DNA of 23,113 nucleotides from IMG/VR virus record IMGVR_UViG_3300027976_000235, positions 1-23,113 of that record. One strand, given 5' to 3'. Position numbers and translations under genes: made by a program. The first letter of the stretch is position 1; every line of letters starts with the position of its first letter. Below the pieces are notes generated by a model. That model saw nothing but the letters and a program-made list of their open reading frames with translations, did not search any database and was not told where the DNA came from. This DNA is from a virus. This document shows, piece after piece, positions 6,791-21,489 of this stretch.

Positions 6791-6811
6791 GATGAGTTTC
6801 CTTAGAGTTAC

Positions 6812-6838: not shown

Positions 6839-6853
6839 GAGCCGGTTGAGGGG

Positions 6854-8013: not shown

Positions 8014-8351
8014 TTACGATTCTCCATCAATGCGAATAGCTCGCGGGTTAATAAGTCGTGATCGGCACCTTCGAGGTCGTCGAGGAGCCTCCCGTCACCG
8101 CATGGCACACAAGGGCGGCTTGCAACGAGCCATGCTGTTCGAGGTATGGGAGTATAGTGAAACACGAAATCATAGATTGCGCGCGCCCAGAGCTGCCCGC
8201 AGACGGGGCAAAACCAGGCAAGGTTAGGGTAGTAGGCGCTACAGCCATTGCCAGCCCCGCAGCAATAGACAACCTGGCGACCCACCAGGGCCTCGGCTTC
8301 GAAGTAAAGGATCGTAGCGTTGCCATGGCAGTCATTCGTCGCCGCTGTCAT
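8010..8351 (-). CDS. 113-residue zinc-ribbon-like protein
   Basis: Cysteines cluster as C30/C31...C37 and C48-PV-C51, with a second CXXC at C81/C84 (RPCVPCGDG). The FCPVCGQLW segment resembles one knuckle of a zinc ribbon. The start MTAATND at 8351 is chosen because GAGGAAG lies about 8 nt upstream, whereas the longer frame (to 8411) overlaps the preceding gene far more. It overlaps the acidic 106-residue gene by 20 bases and is coupled by ATGA to the Sak4-like gene. It probably binds zinc and nucleic acid or a protein partner. No specific family is recognised. Confidence 0.65.
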   Translation of the reverse strand: MTAATNDCHGNATILYFEAEALVGRQVVYCCGAGNGCSAYYPNLAWFCPVCGQLWARAIYDFVFHYTPIPRTAWLVASRPCVPCGDGRLLDDLEGADHDLLTRELFALMENRK

Positions 8352-8652
8352 CGAAGTCTTCCTCTTCCTCCATGAAAGCCTCCCAGAGCGCGTTGCTGAT
8401 GCGGGTGTCATCGAGGAGTTTGCCTAGAGCCTCCAGCATCACCGGGTCTTCCACTGAAGCATTAGCCAAATCCGAAGCCCAAACAACACTAACGCCAGTT
8501 ACTTCCGTCTCCGACTCACCCGGGTGGCAGTCCTCTGGAGGGCCGTATACCCTGGCTGGAGCGTAGACGCAGTTACCCGTAGCTGCCCATGCCACGGTAT
8601 AGGTCTGGCCTTCGTAGGTGACTTCTTGCTCCCCTGTGGCGATGGTAGTCAT
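8332..8652 (-). CDS. 106-residue acidic protein, unknown
   Basis: The product starts MTTIATGEQEV and has a beta-rich N-terminal half (VTYEGQTYTVAWAATGNCV). The C-terminal half is helical and very acidic, ending in EEEEDFDDSGDE. ATG 8652 overlaps the nuclease stop (ATGA) with GGGAG upstream. The acidic tail could mimic DNA or dock on a partner such as the nuclease or zinc-ribbon protein made from the adjacent genes, but nothing in the sequence proves this. No family is recognised. Confidence 0.65.
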   Translation of the reverse strand: MTTIATGEQEVTYEGQTYTVAWAATGNCVYAPARVYGPPEDCHPGESETEVTGVSVVWASDLANASVEDPVMLEALGKLLDDTRISNALWEAFMEEEEDFDDSGDE

Positions 8653-9566
8653 ACCGGCATCTCCCAAGGGGTTTCGGTCCGGGCGACTGGGTCCCACCGA
8701 CGCTGCTCGAATTGCTGGCGAAGCAGTGGCTCTGGTCGCTGCATCTGGCACACGCTACGGAAGGGGCAGCCGCCGTACTCGGCGCAGGCATGGTCAAGAT
8801 TGAAGTCCCAGTACCCGGCCTCCCAGCACTGGATCATTCGCTTGGCGTCTCGGATGAGTTGCTCGTACCAGCGTTCTTGCTGCCACTGGGGACGATACGT
8901 GATGGCTTGGAGGGTATCGTACTTGGATTTAAGAATAGATACACCTCGAACGAGGAATCCATCAAGCTTAATGCCAGCGCGTGCCGCTCCCCAGACGTAG
9001 CCGGTAAATTGACTACGCAAATCCCACTGACGAGGCCAGCTTGCGCCCAGCTGGGAGGCAGTTTTGTCATCTTCTCCAAGGCTCATCCCTTCATAGTCCA
9101 CCATCATGTCCATCCGACCACTGTAAAGGATCGGATCGCCGCTGACTGGGTGGGTAAGGTCCAGCGGCTCGAGGAACGAGAACTCAATACCACGCTTGCC
9201 GCCGGGCAAGGTCATCGGAATAGCCTTGTCGATGCCTAGCGGGTACATGGAGAAGTAATACTCCAGTGCCCCCGCCATGCGCTGGGCGGATTTAGCGCTG
9301 TCAGCTGGGCACTCGAAGTCGCCGTAATGGGTCAGCAAGGCGCTAAGGCCCCTGGCTACGCTGTCATCAGGCGTGGCGCCTTCGATGTAAAACGCTACCC
9401 TGGCGGCCTCGAGGCCCGAGGCAAAGGCGGCGCCCGCGTGAAGATGCACTGAGGGCTCGCGAGCCTTCCAGTGCTGGATGAATTCAAGATAGGCCTTTTG
9501 TGGGCAAGACTTGAACGCAGCCATTGTCGTGCTGTCGAGGACAGCGGGGAAGGGCGGGCGGCTCAT
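8649..9566 (-). CDS. Cas4/RecB-like PD-(D/E)XK nuclease with probable iron-sulfur cluster
   Basis: 305 residues. The core shows GRMD (150-153, metal-binding Asp153), then D166-D-K168 as the (D/E)XK element, and QFTGY (186-190) matching the QxxxY motif of RecB-like nucleases. Cys21 (SCPQKAY) at the N-terminus and C261, C267, C273 at the C-terminus give the four-cysteine arrangement that holds a 4Fe-4S cluster in Cas4 and AddB. The enzyme is expected to resect double-stranded DNA ends. With the Sak4-like ATPase and the SSB-like protein downstream, it would supply single strands for recombination-dependent replication. AAAGGAG before ATG 9566 and the GTGA/ATGA coupling around it support the frame. 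No CRISPR array or other cas gene is present. Confidence 0.85.
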   Translation of the reverse strand: MSRPPFPAVLDSTTMAAFKSCPQKAYLEFIQHWKAREPSVHLHAGAAFASGLEAARVAFYIEGATPDDSVARGLSALLTHYGDFECPADSAKSAQRMAGALEYYFSMYPLGIDKAIPMTLPGGKRGIEFSFLEPLDLTHPVSGDPILYSGRMDMMVDYEGMSLGEDDKTASQLGASWPRQWDLRSQFTGYVWGAARAGIKLDGFLVRGVSILKSKYDTLQAITYRPQWQQERWYEQLIRDAKRMIQCWEAGYWDFNLDHACAEYGGCPFRSVCQMQRPEPLLRQQFEQRRWDPVARTETPWEMPV

Positions 9567-9841
9567 CGCAGTGCTCCTTTAGCAATATACTGCTTGACGG
9601 CTGGGCTAAGACGTAGCTGGTCGGGCCCGAAGATGAAAACGTCTCGCCGCTCAAAGTAAGTGTCGGGTGCGTCGTAATTTACGATTAGTGCCTCAGCGTT
9701 ATACTCGAGCGGTTGAAACACGTAAGGGTTCGCGTTGACTATGTAGACGTTACCGAGGCTGAACAAGTCGCCGTTTCGGCATTCTCCGCCGTTGGTCTCC
9801 CGGAGAATTACTCCGGTTACGAGACACTTCGCGCCGTTCAC
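9563..9841 (-). CDS. 92-residue protein, unknown, GTG start
   Basis: The start is GTG at 9841, overlapping the TGA of the upstream gene (GTGA), with GGAG eight nt before it. The sequence is beta-rich (CLVTGVILRET, GNVYIVNANPYVF, EALIVNYDAPD, DVFIFGPDQLRL), suggesting a small all-beta fold, and ends in a short basic helix. It is coupled by ATGA to the nuclease gene. No recognised family. Confidence 0.65.
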   Translation of the reverse strand: MNGAKCLVTGVILRETNGGECRNGDLFSLGNVYIVNANPYVFQPLEYNAEALIVNYDAPDTYFERRDVFIFGPDQLRLSPAVKQYIAKGALR

Positions 9842-10122
9842 AGCGAATACTCCAGCATCAGCAGGTCGGCGATCTTCTGCTTTAGCTGCTCAGTGTGAGC
9901 AAAAGCGGTAGCTTCGGCCTTAAGCAATGCTGCCTCGAGCCGCGTAATTTCGCTAGCTACAGGATTGAAGTCGTCTGGAATCTCGATGGCTACCGTAGTC
10001 TCCAGGATAAACGTCTTAGACTGGTAAGCAGAACAGTCATAGGACTCTATTGTGTACTCCGGCTGTTTATCGTAATTCAGTCCACAGTGAACGTAAGCAC
10101 TAATCAAAACGGTCTTAGTCAT
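9838..10122 (-). CDS. 94-residue protein with C-terminal helix, unknown
   Basis: ATG 10122 is preferred to the upstream frame start at 10173 because AAGGAG lies 9 nt before it. The N-terminal half is beta-rich (TVLISAYVHCGLNY, TFILETTVAIEIPDDF). Residues 58-94 form a charged amphipathic helix (ITRLEAALLKAEATAF...LKQKIADLL), likely a coiled coil and oligomer interface. It is coupled to the next gene by GTGA. The preceding 56-nt gap holds a small stem-loop (CACGG/CCGTG, 10,149-10,164). Function unknown. Confidence 0.65.
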   Translation of the reverse strand: MTKTVLISAYVHCGLNYDKQPEYTIESYDCSAYQSKTFILETTVAIEIPDDFNPVASEITRLEAALLKAEATAFAHTEQLKQKIADLLMLEYSL

Positions 10123-10178
10123 TTCTCTAACTCCTTGTACTAACTCGCCACGGAGAGGGCCGTGACAACCCATTGATT

Positions 10179-10394
10179 CTAGGAAAGGTCCGCCAGCATA
10201 TCCTCAGCGGAGGGGATTACCGCGATGGCCTTGGTGCGCTTGGCGGCTGCGCTAGCTCCGAGTGCAGTAAGGCGCCCGGCGCGGAGAAGCTTGATTGCCT
10301 CTCTCATTTCGTCGAGGGTTAGCGCGTTCTCAGCCGCCCGGAGGCGCCAGGAAGTTATTTTAGCCTGTAACTCGAGGGGGACTGGTGAACTCAT
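10179..10394 (-). CDS. 71-residue conserved phage protein (LTLDEMREAIKLLRAGR type)
   Basis: The signature LTLDEMREAIKLLRAGR followed by an Ala-rich segment and KRTKA is familiar from short uncharacterised proteins of Burkholderia, Pseudomonas and related phages. It is predicted to be all helical, with a basic middle and an acidic C-terminus (SAEDMLADL). Its ATG overlaps the upstream TGA. I know of no assigned function; nucleic-acid binding by the basic helix is only a guess. Confidence 0.7.
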   Translation of the reverse strand: MSSPVPLELQAKITSWRLRAAENALTLDEMREAIKLLRAGRLTALGASAAAKRTKAIAVIPSAEDMLADLS

Positions 10395-10666
10395 GATTGC
10401 TCCAGACGTTTGGTAAGGGCTGCGATAGCCTCGGGACTACCACTGACGACGTAGCTGCCTGTAGGCGCGCCGACGTAAGGGGCTAAGTCAAGGTGCAGCT
10501 GGGTGAAATACTCGCGGATCAGGTTTACGAGAAACACCGAGTAGCCGCCGTGCGGGACTCTTGCCTCAAGGGGCGAGAACAGGTGCAAGGTTAGCTGGGT
10601 GTAAACCGGTAAGGGCAAAGCTACGTTAAGCTGCTGCGAGGGGATCAGGTTTGGGCGGCGGCTCAT
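10391..10666 (-). CDS. 91-residue putative ribbon-helix-helix-like phage protein
   Basis: The N-terminus (RRPNLIPSQQLNVALPLPVY) and the helix FLVNLIREYFTQ, joined by RVPHGGYSV, follow a pattern seen in many phage early proteins: a short beta strand with alternating residues, then two helices. This suits a ribbon-helix-helix-type DNA-binding fold, but the C-terminal third (SYVVSGSPEAIAALTKRL) is different. GGAG precedes ATG 10666 and the stop overlaps the next ATG. A regulator is plausible but not shown. Confidence 0.65.
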   Translation of the reverse strand: MSRRPNLIPSQQLNVALPLPVYTQLTLHLFSPLEARVPHGGYSVFLVNLIREYFTQLHLDLAPYVGAPTGSYVVSGSPEAIAALTKRLEQS

Positions 10667-10667
10667 G

Positions 10668-10811
10668 CTAGACTCCTTTGGGATAAGGCACGGGGCAAGC
10701 CGCCGGCGCTAAAGCGCCGTCGTCTCGCAACAGCCGGGGACAGTTTAACAGGAACAACGTGGAGGCGGGATGTCGGGGCAGCCGCGAGGCAGATGGGAGT
10801 CGCTTAGACAT
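10668..10811 (-). CDS. 47-residue small ORF, probable gene
   Basis: The ORF MSKRLPSASRLPRHPAS... starts 8 bases inside the preceding gene and ends 1 base before the next ATG. GGAG lies eight nt upstream of ATG 10811, and its end region supplies the SD for the next gene. This tight fit is the main support. The product is Pro/Arg/Leu-rich with two cysteines and no recognisable domain. It could instead be a spacer with chance frame. Confidence 0.45.
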   Translation of the reverse strand: MSKRLPSASRLPRHPASTLFLLNCPRLLRDDGALAPAACPVPYPKGV

Positions 10812-11001
10812 CGCGGTCGCTCCAATCATAGTCCTCGTAGGCCACCATGTCGCCGTCAGAGCCGCGAATCTGGATGTCGTAGCCGGCGGCAAGGAGGCTC
10901 GCGACGCAGATGCTAAGCACGTCGGCTTCGCCTTCGCCGTCTACGCTCAGGGATGCCGGGTCTTCCCAGAAGGAGGAGACCAGGGCGAGTTCAATTGTCA
11001 T
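10804..11001 (-). CDS. 65-residue acidic protein, unknown
   Basis: MTIELALVSSFWEDPAS opens a very acidic product ending DMVAYEDYDWSDRDV. The middle (LSICVASLLAAGYDIQIRG) predicts a helix followed by a strand. The longer frame to 11,079 is rich in Pro and Arg and lies inside the upstream gene, so ATG 11001 (11-base overlap with the previous stop) is chosen; no good SD is visible, which suggests coupling. No family recognised. Small acidic early phage proteins often bind host targets, but that is inference only. Confidence 0.55.
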   Translation of the reverse strand: MTIELALVSSFWEDPASLSVDGEGEADVLSICVASLLAAGYDIQIRGSDGDMVAYEDYDWSDRDV

Positions 11002-11656
11002 ACGGGCTTTCTGTGCGGGTGTTGGTGAAGGTCGCGGGGGAGCCGGCGAAGGAGCCCTCGCTCGGGGGAGCGTAGGCACGCGTTTCCAGCTTAGTCGCCC
11101 GGTTCATCACAGGAAGGATGTTGGTGCCGGCGGGCAAGGTGAGCAGTAGGTCACCCTCGACAAAGACGGTAGGGGAGAGGAGCTCGACGCGGCTGGTATA
11201 GCCGTCGATGAAGTGGAGGCCCAGGGTGACGCCGGCGGCTGCACACGCGGGAAAGTCCAGCATCACGTTAAGCGTGGCGGTGATGACCGTCTCGGCTCGC
11301 GGCGTAGCGTGGTAGAGCATAGGCTGCTCTGCATAGTAGCCGTAGTCGACTTCCTCAACGCAGGTGACTGGGATAGGCACAGCGGAGCGGATGAGCCGCC
11401 GGACGCCCGGCATAGTATTATGGGTCCACTCCCAGAAGTTCCCCATCAGGGACTGCGACGTTGCGTGGACCAGAGCGATGCCTCGCCCCTTGGTCCAGTT
11501 CGCCGGGTCAGCGTAGATCTGCTGGGCGTCAGCACTGTGGCGTTCAGCCGCCGACGCCTGGTTAGTAATGCGGGGCCGCTTGGCGACCTCGGCGACTGCC
11601 ATGCCCCGCCGGGCCTCCGCGAATAGCTCGTCCAGGCTGAGCAGTGACTTATCCAT
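10991..11656 (-). CDS. 221-residue protein of unknown function, early operon
   Basis: The N-terminal 50 residues are helical and basic (LDELFAEARRGMAVAEVAKRP). The rest is beta-rich with hydrophobic strands (IPVTCVEEVDYGYY, TVITATLNVMLDF, VTLGLHFIDGY, LLLTLPAGTNILPV), and the C-terminus is Ser/Thr/Pro-rich. No membrane helix and no recognised motif are seen. GGGAGG six nt before ATG 11656 fixes the start, which overlaps the upstream stop by 8 bases. It is the second gene of the long leftward operon. Confidence 0.7.
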   Translation of the reverse strand: MDKSLLSLDELFAEARRGMAVAEVAKRPRITNQASAAERHSADAQQIYADPANWTKGRGIALVHATSQSLMGNFWEWTHNTMPGVRRLIRSAVPIPVTCVEEVDYGYYAEQPMLYHATPRAETVITATLNVMLDFPACAAAGVTLGLHFIDGYTSRVELLSPTVFVEGDLLLTLPAGTNILPVMNRATKLETRAYAPPSEGSFAGSPATFTNTRTESPYDN

Positions 11657-11852
11657 GGGGAGCCTCCCAGTAGATCGAGGGCTCGATCACGTAGTTGCTG
11701 GCGGCATAATTATCCAGCCGTTCGCCTTCGAACACGACCCCATAGGACTCGCCGCCCCAGGCATTGGTATACTTGACGATCTTGCGCGGGCTATCCTCCG
11801 CGAATTCGCCAGCGATGATTCGGTCTGCTAGACCTTTGTTAACTGTACTCAT
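11649..11852 (-). CDS. 67-residue protein, first gene of the long leftward operon
   Basis: MSTVNKGLADRIIAGEFAED begins with a short helix; the remainder looks beta-rich with several Tyr and Trp (KYTNAWGGESYGVVFEGERL). The leader has GAGG close to ATG 11852 within the AAGAGGCTC sequence shared with two other early genes. The ECF-type promoter site at 11,907-11,934 points at it with a predicted leader of about 50 nt. As no other good promoter was found further left, this gene probably heads the transcript for the replication module. Function unknown. Confidence 0.65.
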   Translation of the reverse strand: MSTVNKGLADRIIAGEFAEDSPRKIVKYTNAWGGESYGVVFEGERLDNYAASNYVIEPSIYWEAPHG

Positions 11853-11906
11853 GAGGAGCCTCTTTGGTTGACTGCGCGAATTACAAAATCATAATCCACA
11901 CCCACA
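11853..11906 (-). promoter_or_regulatory. Leader of the replication operon, with AAGAGGCTC ribosome-binding element
   Basis: The leader between promoter A and ATG 11852 carries AAGAGGCTC directly before the start. The same nonamer stands directly before ATG 13513 and ATG 15472, so three early genes share it. It also holds the 25-nt repeat at 11,874-11,898. Confidence 0.5.
11874..11898 (-). repeat. 25-nt dispersed repeat, copy 2 (in the operon leader)
   Basis: The plus strand starts GCGCGAATTACAAAA and ends ATAATCCA; it matches the reverse complement of 1137-1161 at 23 of 25 positions. It lies 20-45 nt upstream of ATG 11852, within the predicted 5' leader of the operon. Confidence 0.7.
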
Positions 11907-11934
11907 TTAGACGCGGACTGGGACAATTAGTTCC
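11907..11934 (-). promoter_or_regulatory. ECF/RpoE-type promoter A
   Basis: Minus strand: GGAACTA, 15 nt, GTCTAA. An A/T-rich stretch (AAAATATAATTG) lies upstream of the -35 element, as an UP-like element would. Predicted start near 11,900, about 50 nt before ATG 11852. It is one of six sites with identical spacing. The match is to the known RpoE/AlgU consensus (GGAACTT, about 15 nt, GTCTAA); use by such a factor is inferred. Confidence 0.65.
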
Positions 11935-12021
11935 CCAGTTTTCAATTATATTTTCCGCTTACCGATGTACCGGAGCTGCCCCGGCGACCATCCCTTCCGT
12001 TGTTCCCGATCGACTGTCTTA

Positions 12022-12209
12022 GCGCGCTCCGCGCGCAACTGCCGCCCGAGTGCCTCAGAACAAGGGGGAGCGTAGGGGTTTCAACTCCCTACGCCCCTTG
12101 CCGCCCCAGGATAGAGGCTCAGTCACCCCTGGGACTCGCCGGCGGCTGCTGCCGTCGTCTAGGAAAGAGGACTCGGACGCTATGCCGAATCCTCAGACCT
12201 AGCCGCCGG
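12022..12209. other. Intergenic array of stem-loops (possible structured RNA or terminator cluster)
   Basis: The gap 11,853-12,211 has no convincing gene. Four structures follow each other: GCGCGC/GCGCGC (12,022-12,036); GCGTAGGG/CCCTACGC (12,070-12,077 with 12,087-12,094, plus three outer pairs); CCCAGG/CCTGGG (12,105-12,133); and a nested element in which CCGGCGGCT/AGCCGCCGG (12,139-12,147 with 12,201-12,209) encloses the 10-bp hairpin at 12,167-12,194. All are downstream of the 197-residue gene on the minus strand. No U-run follows most of them, so simple termination is not certain. Confidence 0.6.
12167..12194 (-). terminator. Possible terminator hairpin after the 197-residue gene
   Basis: Minus strand: GAGGATTCGG, loop of 8, CCGAGTCCTC (one G-T wobble), then TTTCCT. 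The stem is strong but the U-tract is short, so efficient intrinsic termination is uncertain. Confidence 0.4.
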
Positions 12210-12211
12210 GC

Positions 12212-12805
12212 TTAGACCGCGTCGAGCTCAGCGTCGGCGTCAACTGGTGCTGCCTTGGCTTTCTTGCCCGCTTCCATGCGGCTGATGATCTCGCCCGTCT
12301 TGGTTCCAGTCACGCGGAAGCTGTCGTACAGCGCACGACGGGTAAGCCCTTCGGTGCTGTCGATTTTCTTCTGCAGATACGCTTTGACCGTAGCCACATC
12401 CTTGCCAGTCGCTTCCATGATAGCTTGGATAACCACATGGGCACCACTGACGCCACCACCACCGCTGGCTCGGCCCTTGCCCCAGTTGCCTGCTTGAATC
12501 AGCGCGTTGAGGTCATCAATAGCCACGACCATGTCATCTTCGCTCATCGGATCAGCCGCGCTCGATGCCAGCTCGTCGCCGAATTTCTGCTCCATCCCAT
12601 GCCCCGCGAAGCGCAAGAGCAGCGACGCCGGGCAGTCGATGGTCCGGGTCTCGCCGTTCCGGAAGTCCATCCGAATGCTGACGGTATCGCCGTCAATCAG
12701 AGTCTCCTTCAGCACCTTGCGTTTCCCGGCGAAGCTGACTACGCGCCCATCCGTCAACTCGACACTAACTACTTCGGCTTTCGCCTTAACTTCTGCTTCA
12801 CTCAT
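12212..12805 (-). CDS. 197-residue conserved early phage protein, unknown
   Basis: The N-terminal 75 residues are beta-rich (VVSVELTDGRVVSFAG, DTVSIRMDFRNGETRTIDCP). A Gly-rich stretch (GRASGGGGVSGAHVV, about residue 112 on) precedes a helical C-terminal domain (IQAIMEATGKDVATVKAYL...LTRRALYDSFRVTG) and a charged Lys/Ala/Asp tail. ATG 12805 is chosen over ATG 12811 because GGAG is 8 nt from the former and only 2 nt from the latter. The gene has its own promoter site (B) about 125 nt upstream, with small stem-loops in the leader, and a hairpin array after it, so it is likely a monocistronic early gene. Confidence 0.75.
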   Translation of the reverse strand: MSEAEVKAKAEVVSVELTDGRVVSFAGKRKVLKETLIDGDTVSIRMDFRNGETRTIDCPASLLLRFAGHGMEQKFGDELASSAADPMSEDDMVVAIDDLNALIQAGNWGKGRASGGGGVSGAHVVIQAIMEATGKDVATVKAYLQKKIDSTEGLTRRALYDSFRVTGTKTGEIISRMEAGKKAKAAPVDADAELDAV

Positions 12806-12930
12806 TTTCATTACTCCACGTTGAAGCCCTTTTCACCGGCGGCTTCGTTATTCCGGTTAGTAGAGAACCTACTGGAGAGGCACAGGGCCTCTGCACTGGG
12901 CTCGCCGTTGCGCCATTACAACGGTGATTG

Positions 12931-12958
12931 TTAGACGTAGACTGGGGGGATTAGTTCC
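12931..12958 (-). promoter_or_regulatory. ECF/RpoE-type promoter B
   Basis: Minus strand: GGAACTA, 15 nt, GTCTAA. Its upstream flank (AAAATATATG, then GAAACTGG) is nearly the same as that of promoter A. Predicted start near 12,924, giving a leader of about 120 nt for ATG 12805; the leader contains AGAGGC/GCCTCT and CCGTTG/CAACGG stems. Confidence 0.65.
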
Positions 12959-12965
12959 CCAGTTT

Positions 12966-13205
12966 CTACATATATTTTCCGCCTTGCCGCCCGCGTGCCA
13001 AGTGCAGATGGTGCCACTCCTCCATGGCGGCTATCTTCGCCAGTGCCATATGCCGGGTGAACTGGTGCGACAGGATTGTATGGTCGCACTGCTGGACTTC
13101 CACCAGGGCCTTCTCCGTTTCGGCGGCTGCTATCTCCTCCAGCGTTGGTGCGCGGAAAGGGCTGGAGTAGAGCTTGCAGAAGTCCCGCAACCAGTGGATA
13201 GTCAC
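12966..13205 (-). CDS. 79-residue helical protein, unknown, GTG start
   Basis: The start is GTG 13205, overlapping the upstream TGA (GTGA). The product starts with MTIHWLRDFCKLYSSPF and continues as long helices rich in Glu, Gln and His (PTLEEIAAAETEKALVEVQQ...HMALAKIAAMEEWHH). It is likely a small helical bundle or coiled-coil protein. Similar short proteins are common in early regions of proteobacterial phages without assigned function. It is the second gene of a two-gene unit, and promoter B lies just after its stop. Confidence 0.65.
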   Translation of the reverse strand: MTIHWLRDFCKLYSSPFRAPTLEEIAAAETEKALVEVQQCDHTILSHQFTRHMALAKIAAMEEWHHLHLARGRQGGKYM

Positions 13206-13513
13206 CTTACGCTCCCGGCAGCGAAGAGCACCTTACGCGCTGCCTTAGCCTGCGCATCCCATACCCCTCCGTCATCGCTCTCGGCGGCCCACGCTGCCTT
13301 GGTCTGCGCTTCGTCTTCCCTCAGCGCCACGACTTCATAGTAGTGTCCAAAGTCATGCGGAAATCCCTTCACCACAAACTTTCCCTCCGGATACATCCTC
13401 TTCAGCTGATTCCGGTACAGCTGACACTCTGCCTGCGCCAGGGGATGGCCTACGCTTAGGCAGTCCTCCTCGCAAGGGGTGCTGCCGATATTAATATAAT
13501 TACCTTGGTTCAT
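13202..13513 (-). CDS. 103-residue protein with possible metal-binding Cys/His, unknown
   Basis: MNQGNYINIG opens the chosen frame; AGAGGCTC lies just upstream of ATG 13513, and the extension to 13,546 is not needed. STPCEEDCLSVGHPLAQAEC contains three Cys and one His in 20 residues and could bind a metal or be a recognition loop. The middle has a beta segment (GKFVVKGFPHDFGHYYEVVAL) and the C-terminus is an Ala-rich basic helix. The leader holds a stem-loop with GTGGGC/GGCCCAC arms at about 13,557-13,582. No ECF-type promoter lies directly upstream; promoter C reads through the gene before it. Confidence 0.65.
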   Translation of the reverse strand: MNQGNYINIGSTPCEEDCLSVGHPLAQAECQLYRNQLKRMYPEGKFVVKGFPHDFGHYYEVVALREDEAQTKAAWAAESDDGGVWDAQAKAARKVLFAAGSVR

Positions 13514-13594
13514 TTTGAGCCTCTTTAAGTTACCCTCATCCGGCAAGTTGCCGTGATTGTGGGCCTGTTGCCAAGCCCACTGCCACGCCGTGAC

Positions 13595-13774
13595 CTACGC
13601 TGGTTCTAATCGCACCTTACCGCCTGTGGCGAATTGCGCCAGGCCCGCATTAATTAACTTGACGGCGGCTAACAGTGCTGCCGTTTGCTCCAGTGCTGTG
13701 TCGTCACCGGGCTGAATATTAAATTCGAGGGTAAGTCCCCAGTTTGAATCAATTTCGTCAAAAAGCAATTTCAT
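13595..13774 (-). CDS. 59-residue small protein, unknown
   Basis: MKLLFDEIDSNWGLTLEFNI is chosen as start because AAGGAAG lies six nt before ATG 13774; the longer frame would run across promoter C. The protein has an N-terminal beta hairpin, then a helix (TALEQTAALLAAVKLINAGLAQF), then a basic end. No family recognised. Promoter C gives it a leader of about 43 nt. Confidence 0.65.
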   Translation of the reverse strand: MKLLFDEIDSNWGLTLEFNIQPGDDTALEQTAALLAAVKLINAGLAQFATGGKVRLEPA

Positions 13775-13823
13775 TTTAACTTCCTTTTTGGTCAAGTATG
13801 GCAGCATGATTGCCCCACATTGA

Positions 13824-13851
13824 TTAGACGCTTGCTGCGCCATAAAGTTCC
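13824..13851 (-). promoter_or_regulatory. ECF/RpoE-type promoter C
   Basis: Minus strand: GGAACTT, 15 nt, GTCTAA, an exact match to the RpoE consensus. AAAAATATAATC lies upstream. An inverted repeat (ATGGC..AGCA on one side, TGCTGCCAT on the other) spans the -10 region and could be an operator. Predicted start near 13,817, ahead of ATG 13774. Confidence 0.7.
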
Positions 13852-13881
13852 ACGTCTTGCCGATTATATTTTTAGCTGTGC

Positions 13882-13971
13882 TTAGCCTGCCCGCCAGAGC
13901 CACACGTCGGCGGCTACTACGGCAAGAGCCAGCACGTATGCTAGTGCTAGTGCGCGTTCTGTCCTAGTCAC
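13882..13971 (-). CDS. 29-residue membrane peptide
   Basis: A GTG start at 13971 overlaps the stop of the HTH gene (GTGA) and has GGGAGG six nt upstream, an excellent coupling signal. The product is MTRTERALALAYVLALA followed by VVAADVWLWRAG: two Arg at the N-terminus, then about 20 hydrophobic residues with a Trp-rich end. It should insert in the inner membrane as a single helix. Such peptides are easily missed. The role is unknown; phage membrane micropeptides include inhibitors and lysis modulators, but nothing here decides. Confidence 0.6.
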   Translation of the reverse strand: MTRTERALALAYVLALAVVAADVWLWRAG

Positions 13972-14414
13972 TGGGCACCTCCCGCCCGTAGCTTGTCAAT
14001 ATCAAGCCCGTAATCCCTTGCGTGCTGCTCGAGCTGGCTGAGGCCAGTAGGCTCGCTATCGTCTCCTCCATCCCCTCCGTCAAGCAGTGACCTAGGCGCT
14101 TGACGCGCGGGCGGCTGCTCCGTCACGGCTACAGCTACCGTAGGCACGAGGCCGACTAGCTCATCCATACTCCCTACTCCCATCATAGCCAGCAACCGGC
14201 CTTGGGACTTGTCCACGTCCGACTGGCTGCGCTCACCCGAGCCGGCGCTTCCGCGCCAAGATTCTCGCCGTACTATCCGTCCCACTTGCACCGTGCTCAG
14301 TCCATAGTACTCGCCAATATCCCGCTGCGTAGCACCCTCCGCGTAGTGCTGACGAATTTCCCCGACTTGCTCGGCCGTCATCTTGGCCGATTGCCTGTTT
14401 CGCTTCTCGAACAT
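13968..14414 (-). CDS. 148-residue HTH DNA-binding protein, probable phage regulator
   Basis: After a basic start (MFEKRNRQSAK) a helix-turn-helix occupies about residues 12-52: MTAEQVGEIRQHY, then ATQRDIGEYYGLSTVQVGRIVRR. This matches the HTH found in resolvases and in DNA-binding domains linked to homing endonucleases. The rest (55-148) is flexible, Gly/Asp/Ser-rich, with a short terminal helix, so no catalytic domain is present. A transcriptional regulator of early phage genes is the likely role. AGGAG eight nt before ATG 14414 supports the start. Its 363-nt upstream gap holds promoter D, tandem repeats and an AT-rich block, the most elaborate leader of the arm. Confidence 0.75.
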   Translation of the reverse strand: MFEKRNRQSAKMTAEQVGEIRQHYAEGATQRDIGEYYGLSTVQVGRIVRRESWRGSAGSGERSQSDVDKSQGRLLAMMGVGSMDELVGLVPTVAVAVTEQPPARQAPRSLLDGGDGGDDSEPTGLSQLEQHARDYGLDIDKLRAGGAQ

Positions 14415-14539
14415 AATTCTACTCCTTGGTTAACATCATCTACCTAGCACCCTAGCATCATCCTCTAGCTTATCATTATCTACCTCCATCTAACGGGCTG
14501 TTCTAAATCCTCGGAACCTTGGAATTCTGTACTCTGTTA

Positions 14540-14568
14540 TTTATAAGAAAAAAAAATTAAAATATAAA
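14540..14568 (-). promoter_or_regulatory. Candidate sigma-70-type promoter (weak)
   Basis: Minus strand: TTTATA, 17 nt of nearly pure A/T, TATAAA. The spacing is ideal and the -10 matches 5 of 6, but the block is so AT-rich that chance is likely. It would add a house-keeping promoter before the HTH regulator. Confidence 0.25.
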
Positions 14569-14640
14569 CAAAGAGTCAAGAATCCCAGAATTGAGAGAAC
14601 CCTGTATGATGAAGGTAGATATTGATATGACGCTAACATG

Positions 14641-14667
14641 ATAATGATGATAATGATGATAATGATG
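14641..14667. repeat. Tandem 9-bp repeat, three copies
   Basis: Three perfect copies of ATAATGATG end directly at promoter D's -10 element. Read on the minus strand they form the first transcribed bases after it (CATCATTAT units). A slippage-prone tract in a leader could vary expression. Confidence 0.8.
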
Positions 14668-14668
14668 A

Positions 14669-14696
14669 TTAGACGCATAGCTCGCGAAAAAGTTCC
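14669..14696 (-). promoter_or_regulatory. ECF/RpoE-type promoter D
   Basis: Minus strand: GGAACTT, 15 nt, GTCTAA. An exact consensus match. Predicted start near 14,662; leader to ATG 14414 about 250 nt, beginning inside the 9-bp tandem repeat. It is the only good promoter signal for the HTH regulator besides the weak AT-rich candidate. Confidence 0.7.
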
Positions 14697-14777
14697 CGCC
14701 AGTATTAAATATACTTTGGGGAACCTTCCGAGCCTCGGCCAAGGGGAACTCTTGCGAATTCCCGATGGTCGCGGGTT

Positions 14778-15026
14778 TTACTCCGGTATCCAGCGAAGAT
14801 TACGATTACTCGGCATAACCGATTCGGCTTCCGGATAGTCCTTTTTATACGACGGCAAGCCGTCAATATGAACCGCAATAGCCAGTGCTTTCGTAAACGC
14901 ACTAAGCGGTACGCGCATATTTGCTGTATCTCCGGTCAGGTTATCGGTTATAGAGTAAGAGACTTCCCTATTTACGGTATTGAACGTCAAGATATGATCT
15001 TCGAGGATAATATAACCATTAAACAT
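14778..15026 (-). CDS. 82-residue protein, unknown
   Basis: MFNGYIILEDHILTFNTV opens a beta-rich N-terminal half (EVSYSITDNLTG), followed by a helix (LSAFTKALAIAVHID) and a Pro/Glu-rich end. GGAG seven nt before ATG 15026 is clear. It follows the 126-residue gene after a 65-nt gap holding two stem-loops (GATGTAC/GTACATC at 15,060-15,080 and GGCA/TGCC at 15,045-15,056), so it may be expressed through or processed from that transcript. No family recognised. Confidence 0.65.
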   Translation of the reverse strand: MFNGYIILEDHILTFNTVNREVSYSITDNLTGDTANMRVPLSAFTKALAIAVHIDGLPSYKKDYPEAESVMPSNRNLRWIPE

Positions 15027-15091
15027 AATAAGACTCCATTATCGGCAGGATTGCCGCGAGATGTACCTGTCACGTACATCCCGCTGCCACC

Positions 15092-15472
15092 CTACTCCAT
15101 CGATGCCAGGAATTGCTCGGCAACCTTTGCCTGGGCCTCCTCATACGATATGCCGAGCTTAACCGCAATGGCCGCAATGGTCGGGTTTTGCGGTGCGGCC
15201 TTGGGCTTGCGAACCGTCATATCCCAGCTGTCGCTGGTCGTCAGGTGATTCACCATCTCTTGTGCCGCGTTCCTCCGCATAGCCTCGGTCACACCCGAGG
15301 GATACAGCGCTTTGCTGAAGGCCGCGTTATCGCCCACTTTATGGCCGATGCCGGCTAACTTGGCATATTGTTGGTTTGGCTTGGTGACGTCTGCGAGACG
15401 GATGACTAGGCTGTCCAGCCCATCAAATATAAATGTGACAGTCTCGTCAATTTCATTGATTACTTTTTTCAT
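15092..15472 (-). CDS. 126-residue conserved early phage protein, unknown
   Basis: MKKVINEIDETVTFIFDGLD is chosen as the start because AGAGGCTC lies just before ATG 15472; the longer frame would enter the promoter region. The first 30 residues are beta-rich, the middle (YAKLAGIGHKVGDNAAFSKA...EAMRRNAAQEMVNHLTTSD) is helical, and the end has two helices (PTIAAIAVKLGISYEEAQAK), the last resembling a small helix-turn-helix or UBA-like pair. Promoter E stands about 55 nt upstream. A DNA- or protein-binding function is possible; none is known to me. Confidence 0.7.
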   Translation of the reverse strand: MKKVINEIDETVTFIFDGLDSLVIRLADVTKPNQQYAKLAGIGHKVGDNAAFSKALYPSGVTEAMRRNAAQEMVNHLTTSDSWDMTVRKPKAAPQNPTIAAIAVKLGISYEEAQAKVAEQFLASME

Positions 15473-15531
15473 ATCGAGCCTCTTGGGTTTCCCCGGTTGT
15501 GGACAATCCGCATTGGTTTGCCTCATATGGG

Positions 15532-15559
15532 TTGGACGAACCAGCCCATATAAAGTTCC
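15532..15559 (-). promoter_or_regulatory. ECF/RpoE-type promoter E
   Basis: Minus strand: GGAACTT, 15 nt, GTCCAA (one change in the -10). An inverted repeat (ATATGGG..TGG / CCA..CCCATAT) is centred on the -10 element and could be an operator. Predicted start near 15,525, with a leader of about 53 nt to ATG 15472. Confidence 0.65.
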
Positions 15560-15562
15560 CGG

Positions 15563-15748
15563 TTAACCAGGTTTATTCAACCTGCAAAATTGCACGGTAT
15601 TCGCCCAGCCATTAAACGTGGCGCGCGTTTCGCCATCAGCGTGGTGGACGTAATACCGTTCGTCATCTGGGTTGTACGATACATCATGGCCGTGAACAGG
15701 TGCCTGTTCAACGGCAGGCTCCCCTTTTAACATTGTACGTTTATACAC
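15563..15748 (-). CDS. 61-residue protein, first leftward gene after the divergence point
   Basis: GTG 15748 is preferred because GGAGG lies four nt before it; an internal ATG at 15733 is the alternative. The product continues KGEPAVEQAPVHGHDVSY and has a short beta-rich, His-rich body (DDERYYVHHADGETRATF) ending in NTVQFCRLNKPG. The protein is small, soluble, and of unknown role. Promoter F lies just upstream with a leader of about 42 nt. Confidence 0.5.
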   Translation of the reverse strand: MYKRTMLKGEPAVEQAPVHGHDVSYNPDDERYYVHHADGETRATFNGWANTVQFCRLNKPG

Positions 15749-15796
15749 ATGACCTCCATATCCGGTTGCATGGCCGCATGATCGCTGCCATATGCA

Positions 15797-15824
15797 TTGG
15801 ACGCATGGCCGCCGATAAAGTTTC
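15797..15824 (-). promoter_or_regulatory. ECF/RpoE-type promoter F
   Basis: Minus strand: GAAACTT, 15 nt, GTCCAA. It is the most diverged of the six (one change in each element) but keeps the 15-nt spacing. A/T-rich sequence (TTTATTTTCAAATTG) lies upstream. Predicted start near 15,790. Confidence 0.55.
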
Positions 15825-16237: not shown

Positions 16238-16265
16238 GGAACTATTTCCACCGGTTTTCCTCTAA
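16238..16265 (+). promoter_or_regulatory. Weaker rightward relative of the ECF-type promoters
   Basis: Plus strand: GGAACTA, 15 nt, CTCTAA. The spacing equals that of the six leftward sites, but the -10 lacks its first G, a base usually important for ECF factors. It ends 5 nt before the first ATG of the small terminase gene. It could be chance. Confidence 0.3.
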
Positions 16266-16270: not shown

Positions 16271-16810
16271 ATGGATAAAGCTACGTCAATCATGGATTCG
16301 GACCTGGGGCTGACGGCGGCCCCGACTATGGGGAATCTGGCCAAGGTGGGTTACTCCCATCGGGATATGATTGATTATATCATTGCCTCGCCGGGGTGTG
16401 GGTTGCGGGAGCTTTCCTTGCGCTACGGCTACAGCATCGGGTGGATTAGTAATATACAGGCCTCGGACGCCTGGAAAAGCGCGATGGCGGCGAGACGCGC
16501 CGAGATGGTTGATCCGGTGCTTCATGCTACGATCACGGAGCGCTTCGAGGGGATTACGGCTTTGTCGCTCCAGCGCCTGCAGGAGAAGCTTGAGGCACCC
16601 CAGGTTAGCGACAACGTGGTGCTGCGCGCGGTGGAGCTGGGGGCGAGGGCGATGGGCATCGGTGGGAATGCCGCTGCTACGGTAGTGGTGCCTCAGGGCG
16701 ACCATCTGGCAATGCTGGCTAACCGCCTTATTGAACTTCAATCACGCATTAAAACAGGAGTGAATTATGCCCAGCCCATCGAAGTCGAAGATGCCCACCT
16801 CGTCGCCTAA
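16271..16810 (+). CDS. terS: Terminase small subunit
   Basis: 179 residues from ATG 16271; a second ATG (16,292) is possible, and neither has a clear SD. The frame is open further upstream but that part is structured noncoding DNA. A helix-turn-helix lies at about residues 42-64 (GCGLRELSLRYGYSIGWIS), followed by SDAWKSAMAARRAEMVDPV and long helices (ITERFEGITALSLQRLQEKL...NVVLRAVELGARAMGIGG). This layout, DNA-binding HTH then oligomerisation helices, is that of phage small terminases, and the place ahead of the large terminase agrees. It should recognise the packaging site and load the genome into the motor as a ring. The tail (NRLIELQSRIKTG) is overlapped by the next gene. Confidence 0.82.
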   Translation: MDKATSIMDSDLGLTAAPTMGNLAKVGYSHRDMIDYIIASPGCGLRELSLRYGYSIGWISNIQASDAWKSAMAARRAEMVDPVLHATITERFEGITALSLQRLQEKLEAPQVSDNVVLRAVELGARAMGIGGNAAATVVVPQGDHLAMLANRLIELQSRIKTGVNYAQPIEVEDAHLVA

Positions 16811-17798: not shown

Positions 17799-17965
17799 CT
17801 TACACCTGCCCCGAGGCTGTCCCGGCGACTACCCTTACATCTACCTGCCAAACCGAGACGATTTCCCGGTTTCCCGGTTCTCGAACCTGTCCTCGGCCCA
17901 CTGTCCCCTTGGCGCGCCAGGCGGCAACGCCGCCGGCGCGACACTCAGCTTATGCAGTCCGTTAA
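17795..17965 (+). CDS. 56-residue Pro/Thr/Arg-rich small ORF, uncertain
   Basis: MTYTCPEAVPATTLTSTCQT starts at an ATGA overlap with the previous stop and runs 14 bases into the large terminase gene. The coupling at both ends argues for a gene. The composition (many Pro, Thr, Arg; three Cys) and lack of predicted structure argue for caution. A short direct repeat TTTCCCGG lies inside. No family recognised. Confidence 0.4.
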   Translation: MTYTCPEAVPATTLTSTCQTETISRFPGSRTCPRPTVPLARQAATPPARHSAYAVR

Positions 17966-19427
17966 GCTCACTGCCGATCTTGTCGAGTCTTTCGCGGGGA
18001 CTTTTATCAGTCCTCGTTACGATTCGCAGCGTCCAACGCCGCCTTTTCATCGGGAGGCTTGGGCATTGTATTGCTCCGACCATCCTGCCTGCATGGTCAT
18101 CGCTCCTCGTGATCACGCTAAGTCCACAGCTCTTACAACTGTCTACATCCTGGCCGAGGTTCTATTCCGTTCCAGTGATTACGTCATCATGATCGGCTCG
18201 ACTGAGGACGGTTCCGCTGAGCAGCTCGGGAATATTGTCGAGGAGCTTACGGAGAACGACGATTTGATTCGTGAGTTTGGTATCAAGAAGTTTCTTCGCA
18301 CCAGCAATACTGATGTGATCTGTGAGATGAATGATGGCTGGCGTTTCCGCATCGTCGCTAAGGGCGCGGAGCAACGCATTCGGGGGCGGCTGTGGAAAGG
18401 CAAGCGCCCTAACCTTCTAGTCGCGGACGACCAGGAAGACGATGAGCAGGTTGAGAATACCGACCGTCGTGCTAAGTTCCGCCGTTGGTTCTTCCGCGCC
18501 GCTAAACAAGCGCTTAGCAAAACAGGAAAGATCAGGTTGCATGGCACGATCCTTCACGATGATTCGCTCCTGAATCGGCTGCGGAAAAACCGTACTTGGA
18601 AGCATCTGTTTTACGCTGCTCACACAAGCTTTGATGACTTTTCTAACATCCTCTGGCCAGAGCGTTGGAGTGAGCAGCAGTTGCGCGATCGTCGCCAGGA
18701 ATTTATTGAGGACGGGGACTCGGCGGGTTACTCGCAAGAGTTCCTTAATAACCCTCTAGATCACTCTGACGCTTTTCTCAAGCTCGCGGACTTCTTGCCC
18801 ATGTCGCTTGATGATTATGACTCAGACAAGATTGTTTGCATCGCCTCGGACTTTGCAGTTTCGAAAGCGGATAAAGCTAACCGGACCAGTTTTACCGTGG
18901 GCGGTAAGGACGTTAATAACATTCTTCACTACATTGACCAGAGTGTGGGGCGCTGGGACCCTACGGAGTGGATTGATGAAATGTTTCGTCTGCAAACGCG
19001 GTACAATCCCGAGGTTTTCTGGGTTGAAGATGGTGTGATTTGGAAGTCTGTCAAGTCCATGGTTTATAGGGAGATGCAAGTTCGTGACAAACGAATCAAC
19101 ATTGAAGCAATCCCTTCGGTCAAGGATAAAGCAACTAGAGCTAGATCTTACCAGCGGAGAATGCGCGCCGGTCAGTGCCGTTTTGACAAGCAGGCTGACT
19201 GGTATCCAGGATTTGAGCAAGAAAACTTGCGTTTTACCGGAACAGCTGCAGCTACCCTTGACGATCAGTTCGACTCCGCCGCCCTTCTTAGTCGCGGTTT
19301 CGACGACCTGGCCCATGTAGAGCCAGAGGACTTTTATGACGAGGACGAGCAGGAGATGGAGAAAGGCTTTTGGATGCACAGAAATGCCAGCGCCTCTTCG
19401 GGCCGTAATGCTATAACGGGTTACTGA
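17952..19427 (+). CDS. terL: Terminase large subunit
   Basis: 491 residues. The N-terminal ATPase has APRDHAKST (51-59) as Walker A and LLVADD (155-160) followed by acidic residues as Walker B and catalytic carboxylate. A C motif follows near LHGTILHD (195-202). The C-terminal RNase-H-like nuclease shows IASDF with D300, WVEDG (E359/D360), and LDDQFDSAALL (D437/D438/D441), the usual three acidic positions. This protein pumps DNA into the procapsid through the portal and cuts it at the end of packaging. The start MQSVKL at 17952 has no good SD and is likely coupled to the upstream ORF. From here on the coding sequence has more T and fewer G/C third positions than the genes before it. Confidence 0.93.
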   Translation: MQSVKLTADLVESFAGTFISPRYDSQRPTPPFHREAWALYCSDHPACMVIAPRDHAKSTALTTVYILAEVLFRSSDYVIMIGSTEDGSAEQLGNIVEELTENDDLIREFGIKKFLRTSNTDVICEMNDGWRFRIVAKGAEQRIRGRLWKGKRPNLLVADDQEDDEQVENTDRRAKFRRWFFRAAKQALSKTGKIRLHGTILHDDSLLNRLRKNRTWKHLFYAAHTSFDDFSNILWPERWSEQQLRDRRQEFIEDGDSAGYSQEFLNNPLDHSDAFLKLADFLPMSLDDYDSDKIVCIASDFAVSKADKANRTSFTVGGKDVNNILHYIDQSVGRWDPTEWIDEMFRLQTRYNPEVFWVEDGVIWKSVKSMVYREMQVRDKRINIEAIPSVKDKATRARSYQRRMRAGQCRFDKQADWYPGFEQENLRFTGTAAATLDDQFDSAALLSRGFDDLAHVEPEDFYDEDEQEMEKGFWMHRNASASSGRNAITGY

Positions 19428-19428
19428 T

Positions 19429-21489
19429 ATGCTAAACCTCGAAAACAAGCTTACCCTTAATGCGAAGACCATTGCGTCGCCGAACTTGTGCGACCAGTTT
19501 ACGCCTGAGGATCTTGACGCGATAGGCTCGGAGTGCTGGACAGGTTACGACTACGACCAGCAATCGCGGGCTGTCTGGATGAAGCGTAATGAGGCCGGGA
19601 TGGATCTTGCGTTGCAGATTCAGAAAGAAAAGACTTTCCCTTGGCCTGGCTGCGCTAATGTAGCGTTTCCCCTCGTAACTATAGCCGCGATGCAGTTTCA
19701 CGCCAGGGCCTACCCCGCTATTGTTAACGGGGACACTCTTGTTAAGTGCAAGGTCTTCGGCGACGATCCGACAGGCGAGCATACTGCCCATGCTGATCGC
19801 GTCTCTACGCATATGAGCTGGCAGCTTCTGTACGAAGACAGGGACTGGGAAGAGCAGGAAGATAAAGCTATTCTTAACGTGTCGATTGTTGGCACGAACT
19901 TTAAGAAAACTTACTACCACGCCGGGCTGAAGCATAACGTCAGCGAGCTTGTCTTGGCCAAGGACCTGGTGCTTAACTACTGGTCTAAGTCGGTTGAGAA
20001 TGCTGTGCGTAAGACCCATAAAATTCCTAAGTTCCGCAACGAGGTCTACGAGAATGTGATGCGCGGGATCTGGAAAGACGTGCTTGAGGATGGTTGGTAC
20101 ACTGGCAGCCCGGCGCCCCGAACCACTACGGTGCAGCAGCGGCAGGATCAGCGCCAAGGTGTTACGCCTCCGCAACCAGATGACTCGACCAGTTTCATCT
20201 TTCTTGAGCAGCACGTTAATCTGGATCTGGATGATGATGGCTACGCTGAACCTTATATTATCACCCTTGAAGAGCAGTCTAAGTGCGTGGTTCGTATCGT
20301 CACGCGCTTTGATAATGAGGCTGCAATTGAGCGCATTGTCTCCGGTAAGCACAAAGGCAAGATTATCCGCATTGAAACTGCCGAATATTTCACCAAGAAA
20401 ACTTTTATACCATCGCCAGACGGCGGCATCTATGATATTGGTTTTGGTGTATTCCTCGGACCGCTTAACGAGGCCGTTAATTCCCTCGTTAATATGCTTC
20501 TTGACGCCGGCACAATGCAAACAACTGCGGGAGGTTTCCTCGCTCGCGGGGCTAAGATTCGCGGTGGGACTCAAACTGTTGCTCCCTTTGAGTGGAAGCG
20601 GGTTGATTCGACTGGTGATGATTTGCGGAAGTCGATCTTTCCCCTTCCTGTCAATGCGCCATCTGACGTGCTTTTTCAACTGCTTAGTCTCCTCATCAGT
20701 TACACATCGCGGGTAAGTGGAACCACGGATATTACCGTGGGTGAGAATCCGGGCCAAAACACCCCGGCTCAGACTACGCAGACTATGGTAGAGATGGGCC
20801 AGAAAATTTACACCGCGATTTTCAAGCGCATCTGGCGTTCGTCCAAGGAGGAGTTTCGCAAGCTGTATCTGCTTAATGGGATTTATATGTCCCTTGACGT
20901 GCCAAGCGTGGGCGGCGCTACGCGCGAGGACTATCTAGGTGGTGCTGACGCTATCGCGCCTGTGGCGGATCCCCACATCACTAGCGACGCGCAGCGGATT
21001 CAACTCGCTGTGACGCTCAAGCAGGCAGCCGCCTCTACGCCCGGCTACAATAAGGACGCAGTTGAGCGCCGGTTTCTTAAGTCCTTGCGGGTCGAGGGTC
21101 TTGGCGAAGTGTTTCCGGGTACTGAGGGGCAAGAGCCGCCGAAGGATCCGAAGGTTCAGCTGCAAGAGATCAAGGAGCAGGGGCTTGGGCAGCGGCTGCA
21201 GATGGAGCTACAGCAAAAAGGCGAGATGTTTGTTGCGGAGTTGCTGGAAGATCAGCGCCTTAACAACGCGAAGATTGCGGAACTTAGCGCCAAGGCCGCG
21301 GAATCCGGTGCTAATGCCCAGTCTGAGACGGCTTATGCCCAGGTCGCGATGATTAACGCGCAGTTGGCAGAGGCTAGGCGTGATGATGACAAGCTGACTA
21401 TGCGGATTGACACGATTCTGCGTATGACTGAGATGCAAAGCAAGCGAGAAATTGCAATAAAGGCCTTGGCAAAGGAGGCTAAGGCATGA
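19429..21489 (+). CDS. Portal protein
   Basis: 686 residues, within the range of P22-type portals and larger than T7-type ones. Signature segments are KTFPWPGCANVAFPLVTIAA with the following QFHARAYPAI (68-98), a pattern known from podovirus-like portals, and a central core with DIGFGVFLGPLNEAVNSL and SGTTDITVGENPGQNTPAQT typical of portal stem/clip regions. A Gln/Pro-rich linker lies at about 233-250. The C-terminal 120 residues form a long helix or coiled coil (LQEIKEQGLGQ, IAELSAKAAESGANAQ), a barrel-like extension. It forms the dodecameric DNA entry ring and docks terminase. It starts 1 nt after the terminase stop. Confidence 0.9.
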   Translation: MLNLENKLTLNAKTIASPNLCDQFTPEDLDAIGSECWTGYDYDQQSRAVWMKRNEAGMDLALQIQKEKTFPWPGCANVAFPLVTIAAMQFHARAYPAIVNGDTLVKCKVFGDDPTGEHTAHADRVSTHMSWQLLYEDRDWEEQEDKAILNVSIVGTNFKKTYYHAGLKHNVSELVLAKDLVLNYWSKSVENAVRKTHKIPKFRNEVYENVMRGIWKDVLEDGWYTGSPAPRTTTVQQRQDQRQGVTPPQPDDSTSFIFLEQHVNLDLDDDGYAEPYIITLEEQSKCVVRIVTRFDNEAAIERIVSGKHKGKIIRIETAEYFTKKTFIPSPDGGIYDIGFGVFLGPLNEAVNSLVNMLLDAGTMQTTAGGFLARGAKIRGGTQTVAPFEWKRVDSTGDDLRKSIFPLPVNAPSDVLFQLLSLLISYTSRVSGTTDITVGENPGQNTPAQTTQTMVEMGQKIYTAIFKRIWRSSKEEFRKLYLLNGIYMSLDVPSVGGATREDYLGGADAIAPVADPHITSDAQRIQLAVTLKQAAASTPGYNKDAVERRFLKSLRVEGLGEVFPGTEGQEPPKDPKVQLQEIKEQGLGQRLQMELQQKGEMFVAELLEDQRLNNAKIAELSAKAAESGANAQSETAYAQVAMINAQLAEARRDDDKLTMRIDTILRMTEMQSKREIAIKALAKEAKA

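What the first reader, a model, noticed from the sequence alone, without database searches (positions are those of the whole stretch)
11907..15824. Six leftward sites matching an ECF (RpoE/AlgU-type) sigma promoter with invariant 15-nt spacing
Sites at 11,907, 12,931, 13,824, 14,669, 15,532 and 15,797 all read GGAACT(A/T) (once GAAACTT), exactly 15 nt, GTC(T/C)AA on the minus strand. All are intergenic, all face left, and five of six are 40-125 nt from an early start codon. The RpoE consensus (GGAACTT, about 15 nt, GTCTAA) is established; that a phage builds its whole early arm on this class is unusual. It would tie early transcription to host envelope stress, or to a phage sigma factor encoded outside this window. 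An alternative is a phage RNA polymerase promoter that happens to resemble it.
Basis: partly seen in the sequence, partly recalled or inferred. Interest (0 to 1): 0.85.

Follow-up and report, generated by a model that had tools for sequence, protein, structure and literature searches.

The report
Phage promoters for an injected sigma factor
The six sites look like genuine promoters of the bacterial envelope-stress (RpoE) type, and near-complete relatives of this phage carry a matching RpoE-like sigma factor built into a giant protein that is probably injected with the DNA, which would let the virus switch on its own genes on arrival.

Summary
Six minus-strand sites match GGAACTW-N15-GTCYAA (one GAAACTT) against an expectation of zero. 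In this phage and 14 relatives the same word pair occurs 49 times at exactly this spacing and 3 times at all other spacings from 8 to 25. A seventh, right-facing near-match lies at 16,238, five bases before the ATG of the first late gene; three relatives have a site at the same place.

The relatives point to the phage. The window is a 23-kb fragment without that gene, but its three closest near-complete relatives and many others carry a full ECF sigma factor (regions 2 and 4, closest to E. coli RpoE and AlgU). It sits inside a 1,340-2,070-residue late protein in the ejection-protein position, between head closure and tailspike. Sister phages without the module mostly lack the sites.

Best reading: an RpoE-like sigma module is packaged, ejected with the DNA and steers host RNA polymerase to these promoters, much as N4 injects a whole polymerase. 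Ejection and promoter use are inferred. Two or three relatives keep sites without a recognisable sigma, so host RpoE remains a live rival.

The parts
11907..11934 (-). Promoter GGAACTA-N15-GTCTAA, upstream of ORF 11649-11852 (55 nt)
12931..12958 (-). Promoter GGAACTA-N15-GTCTAA, upstream of ORF 12212-12805/12811 (about 120-126 nt)
13824..13851 (-). Promoter GGAACTT-N15-GTCTAA, upstream of ATG 13774 (50 nt)
14669..14696 (-). Promoter GGAACTT-N15-GTCTAA, 255 nt upstream of ORF 13968-14414 (helix-turn-helix protein); a short tandem repeat follows the -10 box
15532..15559 (-). Promoter GGAACTT-N15-GTCCAA, upstream of ATG 15472 (60 nt)
15797..15824 (-). Promoter GAAACTT-N15-GTCCAA, the first site of the leftward arm, upstream of GTG 15748 (49 nt)
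16238..16265 (+). Seventh, right-facing near-match GGAACTA-N15-CTCTAA, 5 nt before ATG 16271; conserved in position in G006, G021 and G028, so possibly a leaderless late-operon transcript
16271..16810 (+). First rightward gene, small-terminase-like by position and helix-turn-helix look only; no Pfam or PHROG match
1169..15748 (-). Leftward arm served by the six sites: replication-type genes (primase/helicase 1169-2416, DNA polymerase 2413-4911, ParB-methyltransferase 4914-6251, Sak4-like 7156-8013, exonuclease 8649-9566) and small unknown genes
17952..22918 (+). Start of the rightward late arm: large terminase 17952-19427, portal-position protein 19429-21489, further genes. In relatives this arm runs on to the giant protein with the sigma module, which is missing from this fragment

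Best explanation
The sites are ECF promoters of the RpoE type. They are read by host core RNA polymerase carrying an RpoE-like sigma module that the phage brings itself. The module is one bead of a giant modular late protein, the last gene of an ejection-type cassette. The giant would be packaged and ejected ahead of or with the DNA, so its sigma can load onto host core polymerase and start transcription of the replication arm, and of the first late gene, without waiting for new phage protein or for host envelope stress. Shown: the sites, their fixed spacing and conservation; the sigma module in the relatives, its sequence class and its place in the genome. Inferred: that this phage's missing half carries it (its closest near-complete relatives do), that the protein is in the virion and is ejected, that it reads these sites, and that the leftward genes are early.
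For: Spacing: 49 GGAACT/GTCYAA pairs at one spacing and 3 at all others from 8 to 25, over 15 phage records; 57 of 64 sites checked are intergenic. Sigma70 r2 and r4 domains occur only inside giant frames of 1,343-2,067 aa in the first relatives, in 15 of 20 loci of a wider scan, and in the three closest near-complete relatives. Nearest solved structures by sequence: E. coli RpoE 1or7 (1.7e-14), then AlgU. The predicted fold also ranks RpoE and AlgU first; region 4 superposes on RpoE region 4 bound to its -35 DNA (2h27) at 1.1-1.2 A. Nearest bacterial genes are betaproteobacterial rpoE. Published E. coli-type consensus: -35 GGAACTT, -10 GTCAAA or TCAAA (PMC1804206; PMC2893595). Sigma in the giant goes with sites: 8 of 8 near-complete relatives with sigma have sites, 2 of 13 without (Fisher p 2e-4, not corrected for kinship). 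A more distant 46-kb phage with a free-standing sigma of this kind has a perfect site about 63 nt before that gene. The giant lies between head closure Hc3 and tailspike genes, preceded by two other unknown genes, like the ejection cassettes of P22, T7 and N4 (PMC8402733, PMC12633501). Its C-terminal half is modelled as all-helical; the best (weak, E 0.012) structural match is the PhiM1 ejectosome. No consistent internal start for a free sigma. A late-made sigma can serve early promoters if it is carried over in the particle.
Against: The window itself holds no sigma gene; it is a fragment. G005, G010 and perhaps G013 have giants without recognisable sigma yet keep some sites, so host RpoE or an unseen factor must serve there. 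The sigma-free, site-free genomes form more distant branches, so the association is partly kinship. No virion proteomics or transcription data exist; no cultured relative of the giant is known. The sigma model is only moderately confident (pLDDT 70, linker unresolved, the two halves not reliably placed).
Confidence: 0.64

Rival explanations
1. The sites are read by the host's own RpoE, released by the envelope damage that phage entry causes; the sigma module of the relatives is an extra or serves another purpose.
For: The sites match the gammaproteobacterial RpoE consensus. The likely hosts (Betaproteobacteria, by nearest rpoE) have rpoE loci with an RseA-like gene. G005 and G010 have sites without visible sigma.
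Against: 80 loci around rpoE-like genes, mostly betaproteobacterial (1.41 Mb), hold no strict site, so nothing shows that host RpoE there uses this motif. Host RpoE is normally held by RseA (general knowledge). Sister phages without the module mostly have no sites.
Confidence: 0.22
2. The sigma module acts late, in the cell that makes it, to boost or time late transcription, and the leftward sites are used by it then.
For: The module is encoded in the late operon. Sites also precede the first late gene and, in some relatives, the tail genes. The phiEco32-like phages use their own sigma for middle and late genes while host sigma-70 reads early ones (PMC8948821).
Against: Most sites precede the replication arm and the small genes at its start. 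No internal start was found that would free the sigma. The sigma is part of the ejection-position giant.
Confidence: 0.09
3. The elements are promoters of a phage RNA polymerase, or sites of a non-sigma DNA-binding protein, that happen to look like RpoE promoters.
For: Very uniform sites in a phage; short imperfect hairpins overlap two of them.
Against: No single-subunit RNA polymerase in 14 of 15 relatives. A two-box structure with a variable spacer and an A-rich upstream stretch is sigma-like. A matching sigma exists.
Confidence: 0.03

Closest known systems
E. coli RpoE / P. aeruginosa AlgU ECF sigma factors and their promoters
   Same: -35 GGAACTT and -10 GTCTAA or GTCAAA with a fixed spacer and upstream A/T; nearest sequence and fold of the phage module
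   Different: Phage module is about 23-37% identical, is embedded in a giant late protein instead of being a free protein of about 190 residues, and no RseA-type partner was seen
Phage N4 virion RNA polymerase (gp50)
   Same: Giant multi-bead protein of an ejection cassette that brings transcription machinery for early genes
   Different: N4 injects a whole polymerase; here only a sigma module that would need host core polymerase
phiEco32 gp36 / 7-11 gp47 phage ECF-like sigma factors
   Same: Phage-coded sigma that redirects host polymerase to phage promoters
   Different: Those are free proteins made during infection for middle and late genes (PMC8948821); promoter sequences differ
Polyvalent proteins (Iyer et al. 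2017, PMC5512222)
   Same: Large modular proteins coded near virion genes, thought to be injected; some giants here also have a PcfJ-like module, and repeated linkers
   Different: The word 'sigma' does not occur in that paper
P22 gp7/gp20/gp16 and T7 gp14/gp15/gp16 ejection proteins
   Same: Gene position and cassette of three; helical build
   Different: No detectable sequence similarity; no transcription module known there

Membership tests
RpoE-type (ECF) promoter | GGAACTT-like -35 box | tested here: met
   Six sites in window, five exact GGAACTW; for the consensus
RpoE-type (ECF) promoter | GTCTAA/GTCAAA -10 box at a fixed spacing | tested here: met
RpoE-type (ECF) promoter | Initiation 6-7 nt downstream by RNA polymerase with an RpoE-type sigma | not testable with these tools
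   Needs RNA 5' ends or in vitro transcription
ECF sigma factor (module in relatives) | Regions 2 and 4 joined by a linker | tested here: met
   Pfam Sigma70_r2 and r4_2; model
ECF sigma factor (module in relatives) | Closest to the RpoE/AlgU group | tested here: met
ECF sigma factor (module in relatives) | Present in the window's own phage | tested here: inconclusive
   The fragment lacks that half; the closest near-complete relatives G027-G029 have it
Ejection protein (P22/T7/N4 type) | Position between head-tail connector genes and tailspike, last of a cassette | tested here: met
Ejection protein (P22/T7/N4 type) | Sequence or fold similarity to a known ejection protein | tested here: inconclusive
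   No PHROG or significant PDB sequence match; weak fold match to PhiM1 ejectosome, E 0.012
Ejection protein (P22/T7/N4 type) | Found in virions and released on infection | not testable with these tools
   Needs virion proteomics
T7-type RNA polymerase promoter system | Phage-coded single-subunit RNA polymerase | tested here: not met
   PF00940 absent in 14 of 15 relatives

The most novel reading that the evidence does not exclude
A phage group delivers a bacterial-type sigma factor inside the virion, as a module of a giant ejection protein, and has built its early promoters for that sigma: virion-borne reprogramming of the host polymerase without a virion polymerase.
Probability: 0.6. Interest if true: 0.93.

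Novelty: new variant of a known kind. Interest (0 to 1): 0.86.

Why it matters
Phages are known to inject polymerases (N4, phiKZ) or enzymes that modify the host polymerase (T4 Alt), and to make their own sigma factors during infection. A sigma factor carried in the particle would be a further, compact way to take over transcription at the first moment. It would explain why phages of this group use a stress-type promoter that a healthy cell hardly reads, and it is testable: the sigma module, the promoters and the particle can each be checked separately. It also offers a candidate sigma-promoter pair for orthogonal expression and a marker for finding such phages in metagenomes.

Tried and rejected
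T7-type polymerase promoters: polymerase gene absent in nearly all relatives. Free sigma product by internal initiation: no consistent start with Shine-Dalgarno. Hairpin-type (N4 vRNAP) promoters: the palindromes at sites 11,907 and 12,931 are not shared by the other four (by eye). Calibration on host rpoE loci: no sites there, so it neither supports nor refutes host use. Search for the missing half of this very phage in viral contigs: only identical or close pieces of the same half (L007, L041) and a relative's giant were found. Search for a hidden sigma in G005, G010 and G013: nothing with a sensitive profile or a pattern. Sigma-70 promoter scan: 19 weak matches against 8.3 expected, none decisive. 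The two RpoE papers with -35 contacts and the full consensus were not held; residue-level contacts with the -35 DNA were therefore not compared. Ten literature searches found no virion-borne sigma factor; the library holds only openly licensed papers.

Full report
What was checked. The window is a whole virus record of 23,113 bases, a fragment of a podovirus-like phage. Five match TTRGAC-N15-WAGTTCC on the plus strand, with none expected in 100 dinucleotide shuffles; all six match a slightly looser pattern, with zero hits for the reversed control. The gap after the 7-mer is 15 nt every time. Five of six lie 49-126 nt before a start codon with a Shine-Dalgarno, the sixth 255 nt. A seventh site with one mismatch faces right at 16,238, five bases before ATG 16,271. 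Three relatives have a better-matching site (GTCTAA or GTCAAA) directly before the homologous gene. If transcription starts 6-7 nt after the -10 box, that messenger would begin at its start codon.

The sites belong to a phage group. The DNA polymerase of the window found 48 related viral loci, several on contigs near 44-46 kb. Across the window and fourteen relatives, GGAACT followed by GTC(T/C)AA occurs 49 times at the same spacing and 3 times at all other spacings from 8 to 25. Among 64 sites in fourteen records, 57 are intergenic. The aligned sites show further weak conservation: an A-rich stretch about 5-20 nt upstream of GGAACT, and T or C after GTCTAA. This is what an ECF sigma promoter looks like. 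The published E. coli-type consensus is GGAACTT and GTCAAA or TCAAA (PMC1804206; PMC2893595), and structural work on RpoE used GGAACTT (PMC8103513).

The matching sigma factor. A search of the relatives for sigma-70 region 2 gave four hits, all inside open frames of 1,343-1,979 residues. Pfam then showed region 2 and region 4 in the middle of these giants (in G001 region 2 is below Pfam's threshold but aligns with the others). Region 4 was above the curated cut-off in nine records, every time in a frame of 1,343-2,067 residues. A wider scan found twenty loci, fifteen of them giants. The window's three closest near-complete relatives in that set (G027 with 80% identical primase, G028, G029) carry it in giants of 1,843, 1,796 and 1,465 residues. 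The nearest solved structure is E. coli RpoE (E 1.7e-14), then AlgU. The predicted fold of the module again has RpoE and AlgU as best matches, and its region 4 fits RpoE region 4 on -35 DNA at 1.1-1.2 A, though the two halves are not well placed relative to each other. The nearest bacterial genes are rpoE of Betaproteobacteria, followed in the one locus examined by an RseA-like gene and a periplasmic protease. So the promoter class and the sigma class, found independently, are the same class.

Where the sigma sits. In G008 the order is head closure Hc3, a small gene, two unknown genes of 444 and 368 residues, the giant, then tailspikes. This is the place of the ejection proteins in P22 and of the three-gene ejection cassettes of T7 and N4, one of which in N4 is the giant injected polymerase (PMC8402733, PMC12633501; the P22 gene order itself is from general knowledge). 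Giants with and without sigma share a C-terminal domain of about 635 residues. It has no match among 50,697 phage genomes or in PHROGs and no significant one by sequence in the PDB. Its model is all-helical with moderate confidence, and the best structural match is the ejectosome of phage PhiM1, at a weak E of 0.012. The sigma lies next to repeated GxxDPxLL glycine-rich linkers, on both sides in several giants, which suggests beads on a string. No consistent internal start would free it.

Do sigma and sites go together? Among near-complete genomes of this kinship, eight with the module all have the sites; of thirteen without it, eleven have none and two (G005, G010) have some (Fisher p 2e-4). 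Kinship explains part of this: the site-free genomes lie outside the clade of the window, a clade that is itself only weakly supported. G005 and G010 are exceptions. Both records may be incomplete, and no hidden sigma was found. An independent pointer is G062, a different phage with a free-standing sigma of this family and a perfect site about 63 nt before that gene, as in self-regulated ECF factors.

Mechanism. The sigma is encoded in the late operon inside a protein of the ejection type, whereas most sites precede the replication arm. A late-made factor can serve early promoters if it travels in the particle. The best account is therefore that the giant is packaged and ejected, its sigma module binds host core polymerase in the new cell, and transcription starts from these promoters at once. 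Packaging, ejection, binding and early timing are inferred. The main rival is use of host RpoE; a second is late use of the module in the producing cell, as for phiEco32-like sigma factors (PMC8948821).

Novelty. Phage sigma factors, RpoE promoters and injected polymerases are each known. A sigma factor as a module of an ejection-type giant protein, paired with its own promoters, was not found in the literature searched (open-licence papers only) nor among deposited phages. The 2017 survey of polyvalent proteins does not mention sigma. It is filed as a new variant of virion-delivered transcription takeover.

Noticed in passing
window 17013-17090 +: A tRNA-Met (CAT) gene between the first late gene and the terminase; none found in the pieces of four relatives that were scanned.
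   Followed up: partly
window 21727-22059 +: A phage-coded chaperonin-10 (GroES-like) protein in the late arm (Pfam Cpn10, E 1.4e-6).
   Followed up: no
window 4914-6251 -: Fusion of a ParB-like domain with a DNA methyltransferase; ORFs of the same start and size occur in the relatives.
   Followed up: no
window 14635-14668: Tandem repeat of ATAATGATG-type units directly downstream of the -10 box of site 14,669, within the predicted leader.
   Followed up: no
L060:5323-11517, L075:10151-15757: Some giants carry a PcfJ-like module besides the sigma; modules differ between relatives and are separated by GxxDPxLL glycine-zipper-like linkers.
   Followed up: partly
L357-L359 (G062 35331-35963): A different 46-kb phage with a free-standing RpoE-like sigma and a perfect site upstream of it: possible self-regulated phage ECF factor.
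   Followed up: partly
L059 (G004, 75-kb contig): T7-type RNA polymerase fragment in a contig that also holds this group's DNA polymerase region; possibly chimeric.
   Followed up: no
L111:39992-40171: A gene of 180 bases in MW202489 is annotated as 'class d beta-lactamase oxA-58', which at that length is almost surely a wrong name.
   Followed up: no
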